Assembly (NCBI GenBank): GCA_927441425.1
Contig: CAKMKG010000034.1
Location: 1-64,000 of the forward strand
Source of the DNA: an uncultured Bacillota bacterium
GTDB lineage: Bacteria; Bacillota; Clostridia; Peptostreptococcales; Anaerovoracaceae
Reading direction: 5' to 3'
Length of the DNA: 64,000 nt
Part shown: piece by piece, positions 32,702 through 49,586 of the stretch
Layout of the letters: every line of letters begins with the position of its first letter
Position numbering within the stretch: position 1 is the first letter of the stretch
Program-made: the position numbers and the translations under genes
The notes under the pieces: model-generated
What the model was told of the DNA's origin: nothing
What the model saw: the letters and a program-made list of their open reading frames with translations, nothing else
Database searches by the model: none

Positions 32702-32759
32702 AAACGAAATTAATAACGAATAAACCGTTGATGTGGAGATAAAAACAAATCGTGCCTTT

Positions 32760-33007
32760 ACAGAGAGCCGGGGTAGCTGAGATCCGGTAAGACGCAGATT
32801 GTTAAATGGACCACGGAGGGCGCAGTCAAAGGAATTTCTGATTCCGAGTATTCTGCGACGCGATGGCATGCGTCAGTTGCCGGGGATATGTTGGTATCCT
32901 GTTAAGCGTGTGGATTCATTTATTTCTCCACAAAGCAAGGTGGCACCGCGGGTTTATGAAATTGAACTCGTCCTTGACAGTATTTCTGTTGAGGACGGGT
33001 TTTTTGT
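32760..33007 (+). promoter_or_regulatory. T-box leader (Trp) with intrinsic terminator
   Basis: Stem I motif AGAGAGCCGGGGTAGCTGAGATCCGG; UGG specifier candidate 32807-32809; AAGGTGGCACCGCGG at 32937-32951; terminator CTCGTCCTTGACAG/CTGTTGAGGACGGG+T-tract. Confidence 0.93.
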
Positions 33008-47681: not shown

Positions 47682-47745
47682 ATTATGCTAGTAATATAAA
47701 TTATAGAAAAGTACTGGACAAGAAAATATCGGAGTAGCTTTGCTC

Positions 47746-47866
47746 AAATAATCCTCTTGAAAGAATAAGGTCTTTGGCAAATGACGAAGTCATTTTAGGA
47801 AAACACCGTTGTACGGACTGCGTTTGTTTTCCGTTCCAAAGACCATGATTGAAAGAGAGATTATTT
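47746..47866. ncRNA. Putative multi-branched structured RNA or small palindromic mobile element, strand and function unknown
   Basis: AAATAATCCTCTT/AAGAGaGATTATTT; GGTCTTTGG/CCAAAGACC; AAATGAC/GTCATTT; GGAAAACA/TGTTTTCC; CCGT/ACGG, all properly nested. Confidence 0.5.
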
Positions 47867-47903
47867 CAAAACTGCGACTATTTTCTGTACAGTACGTTCT
47901 ATT

Positions 47904-49586
47904 TTAATATGAGTTCTCATAATTACTCATCGGTTCATTTTTCTTCAGCATGCCGTCGAAGACATCCCAGATTCGATCCTCTCCCTGGCCGAACTGCCAG
48001 CAGGCAGAGCCTGCCAAATTATATTGAGAGACCAAATTCAGCCGATTGGAAATGGAACGAGTATCTTCAATCCAAATCTTACTCATATTGGCACCGCTGG
48101 CGTATTCCACATAATATTGCTTCTCCTTGTCCCGCCAAACGGGAGTCAGGTTTTTCGATGCAACGGTACTTCGGACCGCCGGCATTTTCGCGGAAGGATT
48201 CGAAATAACTTTCCCGGTACTATCTACGGTCCAAACTCTGGTATAGAGCGGAATACCCATTAACAGCTTAGAAGCAGGAACATCCTTAAGCGTAGCTTTT
48301 ATCGCATCCTCAACCCATGGCAAAGAAGCGATGGAACCTGCGGCAGGACTTCCCCCATAATGCTCGTCATAGGTCATTACCACCAGATAGTCGACATATT
48401 TTGAAAGGGAGGCCCGGTCATATTCTATCGTCCAAGGCCTTGGGATCAAGGTATCGATGGACAAAACAAGACCTTGCTTTTCCGTATAATTTCTCATCAA
48501 TGCGGTAAATGAGACAAGACCGGCTGCATCGCCGTCAGCCACATCCTCATAATCGATATTGATCCCATCCACATCATAAAGACAGGAATAAAAGATATAT
48601 TGAGCGACGGACTTGTTCAATAGTCCACTGTTGTTAAAGGTTTTTGTAGTGAAAGCAGTGGAACCTTTTGTTGACATATTATTTGTTATGGTAGCCCAAA
48701 CCATATATCCTTTGGAATGAGCAGAAGTAGTATAACCCTTGTCTCCATTGTTTTCAACGCTTCCATCACCATCAGTAATCAGATCGAACCAAGTAGGAGA
48801 TAAAATGTCAAGGCCGTTATGCTTGATTGCCGGCGCACTGGGTGTAACGGAGCCCACATACTCCCAAGCAAGATTGATTTTCTCACTGCCTCTTTTGAAT
48901 TTTGATTTCTTTGGAGCATAAAAATCAATCTTAGCCAGATCGATTTCCGATATGGTGACGTAATCTTTCATGACATAGACGGTGCCTCCGTCTTCCGATG
49001 ATAGCTTATAATAATTATCTGTTTCACCTGTGATAAATACTGTATCGTTTAAACTCATATTCACCGTGGCGCCTTGCCCATCCAGAAGGGAAGAAATCCC
49101 TTGCACATTGCTTTCGTTGATCTTCGCGATCTTATCAGTCCCTGAATACGCGCGCATCTTAATGCTATCGTCGGATACGGTGTAGCTAAGCTTGAAAAAC
49201 TGTTCCGTTGTGTTTAACGGAAAATAAAGCTCTTTCTCGATTTCTCTTAAAGGGATGTAGACGTTCCCTGCATAGGTTTTTACAAAATTGGTGGTTGCGT
49301 CGTCTGCCATCATGATGTTTTGAGATGAAAGGTTGATGACAAGCCGTTTCTTCCCTTGATCAACTATGATTCCTGGGTTGTTGGCATAAGTGCCGAGCAA
49401 GGAAATGGGCAAATATGGTGTATTGTTTATATAATAACCTCTCTGGCTTATCCTCTTACTATTATAATACAAGGAATAGGAGCCGTCATCTGCTCCGAAC
49501 GCCGGAAGATAAAGCAGAAGCCCGCTGTTGATTCCTGTAATAATCAGACAAAAAATGATGAATACTGAAATTACTCTTTTCTTCAT
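47904..49586 (-). CDS. GH18-family glycosyl hydrolase with N-terminal stalk (CuAO_N-like) and SH3-like regions
   Basis: DGINIDYEDV (DxxDxDxE); signal peptide MKKRVISVFIIFCLIITGINS; SACWQFGQGEDRIW. Confidence 0.87.
   Translation of the reverse strand: MKKRVISVFIIFCLIITGINSGLLLYLPAFGADDGSYSLYYNSKRISQRGYYINNTPYLPISLLGTYANNPGIIVDQGKKRLVINLSSQNIMMADDATTNFVKTYAGNVYIPLREIEKELYFPLNTTEQFFKLSYTVSDDSIKMRAYSGTDKIAKINESNVQGISSLLDGQGATVNMSLNDTVFITGETDNYYKLSSEDGGTVYVMKDYVTISEIDLAKIDFYAPKKSKFKRGSEKINLAWEYVGSVTPSAPAIKHNGLDILSPTWFDLITDGDGSVENNGDKGYTTSAHSKGYMVWATITNNMSTKGSTAFTTKTFNNSGLLNKSVAQYIFYSCLYDVDGINIDYEDVADGDAAGLVSFTALMRNYTEKQGLVLSIDTLIPRPWTIEYDRASLSKYVDYLVVMTYDEHYGGSPAAGSIASLPWVEDAIKATLKDVPASKLLMGIPLYTRVWTVDSTGKVISNPSAKMPAVRSTVASKNLTPVWRDKEKQYYVEYASGANMSKIWIEDTRSISNRLNLVSQYNLAGSACWQFGQGEDRIWDVFDGMLKKNEPMSNYENSY

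What the first reader, a model, noticed from the sequence alone, without database searches (positions are those of the whole stretch)
47746..47866. Highly structured 121-nt intergenic element with five nested helices
Outer 13-bp helix AAATAATC-CTCTT / AAGAG-a-GATTATTT; then a 9-bp helix GGTCTTTGG/CCAAAGACC; then a branch with AAATGAC-gaa-GTCATTT and GGAAAACA/TGTTTTCC capped by CCGT-tgt-ACGG. All helices are perfect or nearly so and properly nested, in a gap between convergent sdpI and GH18 genes. I recognise no Rfam class. Options are an independent sRNA, a 3'-UTR element on either strand, or a MITE/REP-like palindromic element.
Basis: seen in the sequence. Interest (0 to 1): 0.66.

Follow-up and report, generated by a model that had tools for sequence, protein, structure and literature searches.

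The report
Dispersed gene-end hairpin repeat family
The 121-nt hairpin is the core of a roughly 200-nt folded repeat that sits beside the stop codons of many genes in one group of Clostridia; evolution has kept its shape while its sequence changed, so it is a real but uncatalogued structured element whose way of spreading and role are still unknown.

Summary
The helices are real (z = -5.6 and -6.6 on the two strands). The full hairpin spans about 47703-47902, from just after sdpI to 1 nt short of the GH18 stop codon.

It is not single-copy. A covariance model finds 10 copies in this genome, 1-10 in all nine genomes of the genus, and copies in six other genera of the family. None was found outside the family in the genomes sampled. 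No Rfam, phage, plasmid or viral-contig match was found.

Covariation is strong. On 82 distinct copies, 57 of 58 pairs change on both sides and 91% of cells pair. Tandem G-A mismatches are kept while flanking pairs change. Wobbles favour the + strand (G-U 189, A-C 78).

Copies lie between genes. Of 56 sites, 26 are antisense to a gene pair, 7 sense, 16 between convergent genes and 1 divergent. One other genus has near-identical 560-810 bp copies.

Best reading: a non-autonomous mobile repeat, bcr/MITE-like, whose folded + strand is under selection. The mobilising enzyme and any host function are unknown.

The parts
47703..47902 (+). whole hairpin element (window copy)
   Evidence: outermost enclosing pairs in the fold of the extended region; model match 47719-47886, 153.5 bits
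47719..47886 (+). conserved module matched by models R1 and R2
47703..47718 (+). 5' outer arm, locus-specific sequence, pairs with 47887-47902
   Evidence: differs between loci but stays complementary
47887..47902 (+). 3' outer arm, ends 1 nt before the GH18 stop codon (47904-47906)
47732..47733 (+). tandem G-A step 1, 5' side (partner 47876-47877)
   Evidence: G 77/82 and A 81/82 of copies; partner G 68/83, A 77/83
47759..47764 (+). GA-AA-GA: tandem G-A steps 2 and 3, 5' side (partners 47847-47852, GA-UU-GA)
   Evidence: sequence; one of the two steps is conserved in many copies, the other was read by eye
47769..47777 (+). helix P3 GGTCTTTGG, pairs with 47836-47844
   Evidence: 96% of cells paired
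47779..47795 (+). hairpin P4 AAATGAC-GAA-GTCATTT, one arm of the three-way junction
   Evidence: 94% of cells paired
47798..47832 (+). hairpin P5 GGAAAACA...TGTTTTCC with the conserved CAC/GTTTG tip, second arm of the junction
   Evidence: 99% of cells paired in the stem

Best explanation
It is one copy of a dispersed, non-autonomous repeat family of the general bcr/MITE kind, found here only in one clostridial family. The unit is a ~200-nt rod-like hairpin: a long stem with tandem G-A internal loops and a three-way junction at the tip. SHOWN: it is multi-copy and intergenic; it sits mostly at stop codons with a preferred orientation; at one locus it is present in some species and absent or deleted in others; its fold is conserved through compensatory change, with a + strand bias. 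INFERRED: copies arose by mobility, since one genus has near-identical 560-810 bp copies with inverted terminal repeats at many loci. INFERRED: after insertion many copies stay put and are inherited with the neighbouring gene while the folded + strand, as RNA or single-stranded DNA, stays under selection. The most likely reason is that the folded strand is what an unidentified enzyme or binding protein recognises. NOT SHOWN: the mobilising enzyme, a transcript, any host function.
For: Copies. Covariation on a structure-free alignment of ten copies: 33 of 58 pairs changed on both sides, score 0.431 against 0.196 shuffled and at most 0.116 slid; on 82 distinct copies 57 of 58 and 0.669 against 0.202 and at most 0.113. 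Within orthologous loci 143 changed pairs keep pairing, 77 do not. G-U over A-C on the + strand: 22 to 6 on pairs predicted from both strands, 189 to 78 overall, in every context. Placement and orientation. Mobility signs: near-identical repeats with TATTTATTAGTTWG ends in G098; element-free purE-purC in G001 (31 nt) against 209-236 nt in G008 and G002, and a scar in G004.
Against: No transposase was found between the terminal repeats, and no target-site duplication was established. Outer arms are not shared between loci, unlike the fixed terminal repeats of ordinary MITEs. Many loci are shared between species and purH, ricT and smc even between genera, which fits long-standing residents or host function as well as mobility.
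Confidence: 0.62

Rival explanations
1. A host RNA element. The hairpin works in transcripts at gene ends or between genes of an operon, or as an antisense RNA, for example by blocking exonucleases or being cut by RNase III. Its spread is incidental.
For: Compensatory evolution at fixed orthologous loci, + strand wobble bias, conserved G-A steps, intercistronic position between purH and purD, purE and purC, and others.
Against: Most copies place the favoured strand antisense to the operon (26 to 7 sites), and no conserved promoter was recognised on that strand. Host genes next to copies are unrelated in function, and species of the genus lack or delete copies.
Confidence: 0.25
2. A DNA palindrome kept perfect by template switching between its own arms during replication, with no function and no selection on a folded strand.
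For: Outer arms are unique to each locus yet complementary, and at purE (G008, G002) and smpB (G000) the stem runs into the last codons of the gene.
Against: Arm-to-arm copying would erase the G-A mismatches, which are instead kept while neighbouring pairs change. It also predicts equal G-U and A-C counts, which is not seen. It may still contribute to the outer arms.
Confidence: 0.08
3. A REP/BIME-type element mobilised by a REP-associated Y1 (IS200-like) transposase.
For: Intergenic hairpins, strand asymmetry, head-to-head pairs, comparable to REP doublets (PMC2817692).
Against: No Y1 transposase domain in G008, G001, G007 or G098, all of which carry copies. The unit is 200 nt, not 20-40, and copy number is about ten, not above a hundred.
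Confidence: 0.03

Closest known systems
bcr1-bcr3 repeats of the Bacillus cereus group
   Same: Intergenic, 100-400 bp, MITE-like, with a predicted common stem-loop structure, found in UTRs and inside operons (PMC3446304, PMC6542083, PMC2267715).
   Different: Different bacteria. Here the fold has a three-way junction and tandem G-A steps, far deeper covariation, outer arms unique to each locus, and a stop-codon and antisense bias. Sequence relation was not tested directly.
Non-autonomous MITEs of DNA transposons
   Same: Small, multi-copy, intergenic; the G098 copies have inverted terminal repeats and TA at their ends.
   Different: In the window's own genus no shared terminal repeat is recognisable; no partner transposase found; the conserved part is the tip of the hairpin, not its ends.
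REP/BIME elements with RAYT
   Same: Extragenic palindromes, often downstream of genes, sometimes in inverted pairs (PMC2817692).
   Different: Much longer, far fewer copies, no Y1 transposase in several carriers.
Stem-loop sequence families catalogued in bacterial genomes
   Same: Intergenic repeat families with a predicted common fold (PMC2267715).
   Different: Rfam 15 holds no matching family; the catalogued families were not compared by sequence here.

Membership tests
MITE | Small, non-coding, multi-copy, intergenic | tested here: met
   ~200 nt unit, 1-13 copies per carrier genome, between genes
MITE | Terminal inverted repeats shared between copies | tested here: inconclusive
   Shared ends TATTTATTAGTTWG in G098; arms unique to each locus in the window's genus
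MITE | Target-site duplication | tested here: inconclusive
   TA at both ends of several G098 copies, but AT-rich and not proven against an empty site
MITE | Partner autonomous transposon with the same ends | tested here: inconclusive
   All G098 end matches listed; no pair was seen framing a transposase-sized gap, but several lie at contig ends
REP/BIME (RAYT-linked) | Y1 transposase in the genome | tested here: not met
   Absent in G008, G001, G007, G098
REP/BIME (RAYT-linked) | 20-40 nt palindrome in high copy number | tested here: not met
   200 nt, about ten copies
Known Rfam family | Match above gathering score | tested here: not met
   permissive searches also empty or chance
Structured RNA | Covariation beyond shuffled and slid controls | tested here: met
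Structured RNA | Made as a transcript | not testable with these tools
   no expression data
Standard kink-turn | 3-nt bulge directly followed by tandem G-A pairs | tested here: not met
   motif 1 has a 2-nt bulge and one covarying pair before the G-A step
Group II intron or RT-dependent element | Reverse transcriptase in the carrier genome | tested here: not met
   RVT_1 absent in carriers G001 and G160

The most novel reading that the evidence does not exclude
A new class of structured genetic element, RNA or single-stranded DNA: a ~200-nt rod with serial tandem G-A steps that colonises the ends of housekeeping genes in a preferred orientation and is copied by a mechanism that reads its fold rather than fixed terminal sequences.
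Probability: 0.2. Interest if true: 0.8.

Novelty: new variant of a known kind. Interest (0 to 1): 0.55.

Why it matters
Bacterial dispersed repeats are mostly known by sequence. Here the stem sequence turns over almost completely while a specific fold, with non-Watson-Crick steps, is kept across several genera. That gives a well-supported covariance model, a defined list of loci and a clear question: which protein or process reads the folded strand. It also adds an uncatalogued structured family for annotation.

Tried and rejected
Permissive Rfam search gave only a plant-type snoRNA at E = 4.8, taken as chance. Plasmid, phage and viral-contig searches found nothing. The sixth own-genome BLAST hit (L006, G000 C13) looks like part of a T-box-like leader and does not fold as the element. 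A 31-nt match in another family of the order (L019) covers one arm only and was set aside. A standard kink-turn was considered and does not fit motif 1. Integron attC, IS110 bridge RNA and TnpB-type guide RNA were considered on anatomy only and not tested. Orientation set by replication rather than by genes cannot be separated in G008 (5 against 2 either way), and the window copy has the opposite relation to its GC skew. Reverse transcriptase and Y1 transposase partners are missing from some carriers. Literature searches by sequence words and by topic found no description; the library is open-access only. Contigs of named relatives around the neighbouring ABC gene hold no copy. The palindrome makes the model also match the opposite strand of two copies weakly; these were left out.

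Full report
1. Observation. The stem continues outward to about 47703-47902. It begins about 20 nt after the sdpI stop and ends 1 nt before the GH18 stop codon. The apparent gaps in the stem read as tandem G-A/G-A steps: GGAG/GCGAC near the base, and CUCUU-GA-AA-GA-AU/AU-GA-UU-GA-AAGAG higher up.

2. Copies. BLAST finds four further convincing copies in this genome and copies in five other genomes of the genus. Model R1, built from ten copies, and R2, built from its 56 matches, find copies in all nine genomes of the genus. They also find copies in six other genera of the family: G098 with 13, G160 with up to 8, G033, G105, G080 and G141. No genome outside the family matched in samples of its order and class; those samples also held some genomes of the family. 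The nearest named contigs by a neighbouring gene include Emergencia, of Anaerovoracaceae, so a clostridial host near that family is an inference.

3. Selection on the fold. On ten copies aligned without a structural model, 33 of 58 pairs change on both sides, with score 0.431 against 0.196 shuffled and at most 0.116 slid. That structure was derived from the same alignment, which favours it on the percentage paired. On 82 distinct copies the figures are 57 of 58, and 0.669 against 0.202 and at most 0.113. That alignment is fitted to the model, which inflates the pairing percentage, but a slide of one base collapses every measure. Between copies at the same locus in different species, 143 changed pairs keep pairing and 77 do not (some comparisons share a sequence). 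At motif 1, G and A on the 5' side are present in 77/82 and 81/82 copies and their partners in 68/83 and 77/83, while the adjacent pair switches among GC, UA and CG.

4. Which strand. On pairs predicted from both strands, G-U outnumbers A-C on + by 22 to 6. On all copies it is 189 to 78, and the excess appears in antisense, sense and convergent settings alike. Copies are related, so these are not independent counts. The G-A steps also belong to this strand; on the other they would be U-C mismatches. RNA and single-stranded DNA cannot be told apart here.

5. Placement. On the 3' side of the + strand, the neighbouring gene has its stop codon facing the element in 60 of 72 copies, many within about 60 nt of the core. 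Counting each locus once, by neighbour-protein clustering, there are 26 antisense, 7 sense, 16 convergent and 1 divergent. The 26 to 7 split has a two-sided binomial probability of about 0.001 if sites are independent (my arithmetic). Neighbours were called as longest ORFs, so some may be wrong. Loci shared by species include purH, purE, ricT, smpB, mnmE, secA, hypA and the sdpI/GH18 gap; purH, ricT and smc are shared with the other genus G098. Gene names other than SdpI and GH18 rest on recognising the protein sequence, not on a database search.

6. Mobility. In G098 the module lies in near-identical 560-810 bp repeats at many loci, several holding two modules head to head. Their ends read TATTTATTAGTTWG and its complement. 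In at least five of them the unique sequence begins at a TTA that is the stop codon of the neighbouring gene. At purE-purC, G001 has 31 nt and no element, G008 and G002 have 209-236 nt with it, G004 keeps only its outer ends, and G000, G003 and G005 keep what looks like a shortened hairpin. So copies come and go, but the mechanism is not shown. Y1 transposases and reverse transcriptases are each absent from some carriers.

7. Interpretation. Intergenic repeats that fold, such as bcr1 of Bacillus cereus, are described as MITE-like and found in UTRs and operons (PMC3446304, PMC6542083, PMC2267715). This family resembles them in distribution. It differs in its fold, its tandem G-A steps, its stop-codon and orientation bias and the depth of its covariation. 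I did not test sequence relation to those families beyond Rfam. Formal MITE membership is only partly met, and REP/RAYT membership fails. The orientation bias has at least three possible causes that I could not separate: polarity of insertion, loss of sense copies through effects on the operon, or instability of the stronger hairpin on one replication strand.

8. Limits. No expression data, no strain-level comparison, fragmented relatives, and short calibration of the models. E-values are rough; bit scores and covariation carry the argument.

Noticed in passing
window 32719-32978 (+): T-box leader, just at Rfam's gathering score (93.1 against 93).
   Followed up: no
L284, L283, L109 (purE of G002 and G008, smpB of G000): The hairpin stem runs into the last codons of the adjacent gene, and the non-coding arm is complementary to them.
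   Followed up: partly
G007 contigs C175 and C130 (L110, L111): Beyond the purE copy lies a direct repeat of about 45 nt made of the purE end plus the element end, as if a duplication had partly collapsed.
   Followed up: partly
L286, L287, L290 (purE-purC of G000, G003, G005): A shorter hairpin lacking the conserved tip sits where other species have the full element; it looks like a deletion derivative.
   Followed up: partly
L117, L112 against L179, L118, L169 (purH-purD): The same locus carries different sequence subfamilies of the element in different species, suggesting replacement by gene conversion or re-insertion.
   Followed up: partly
L176 and L162 (smc-ftsY of G000 and G098), L245 (G008): Head-to-head pairs of the module, with 3' ends pointing outward.
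   Followed up: partly
L158 618-749 and L161 1180-1255 (G098): An FMN riboswitch and an S10-Clostridia leader near two copies; unrelated to the element.
   Followed up: no
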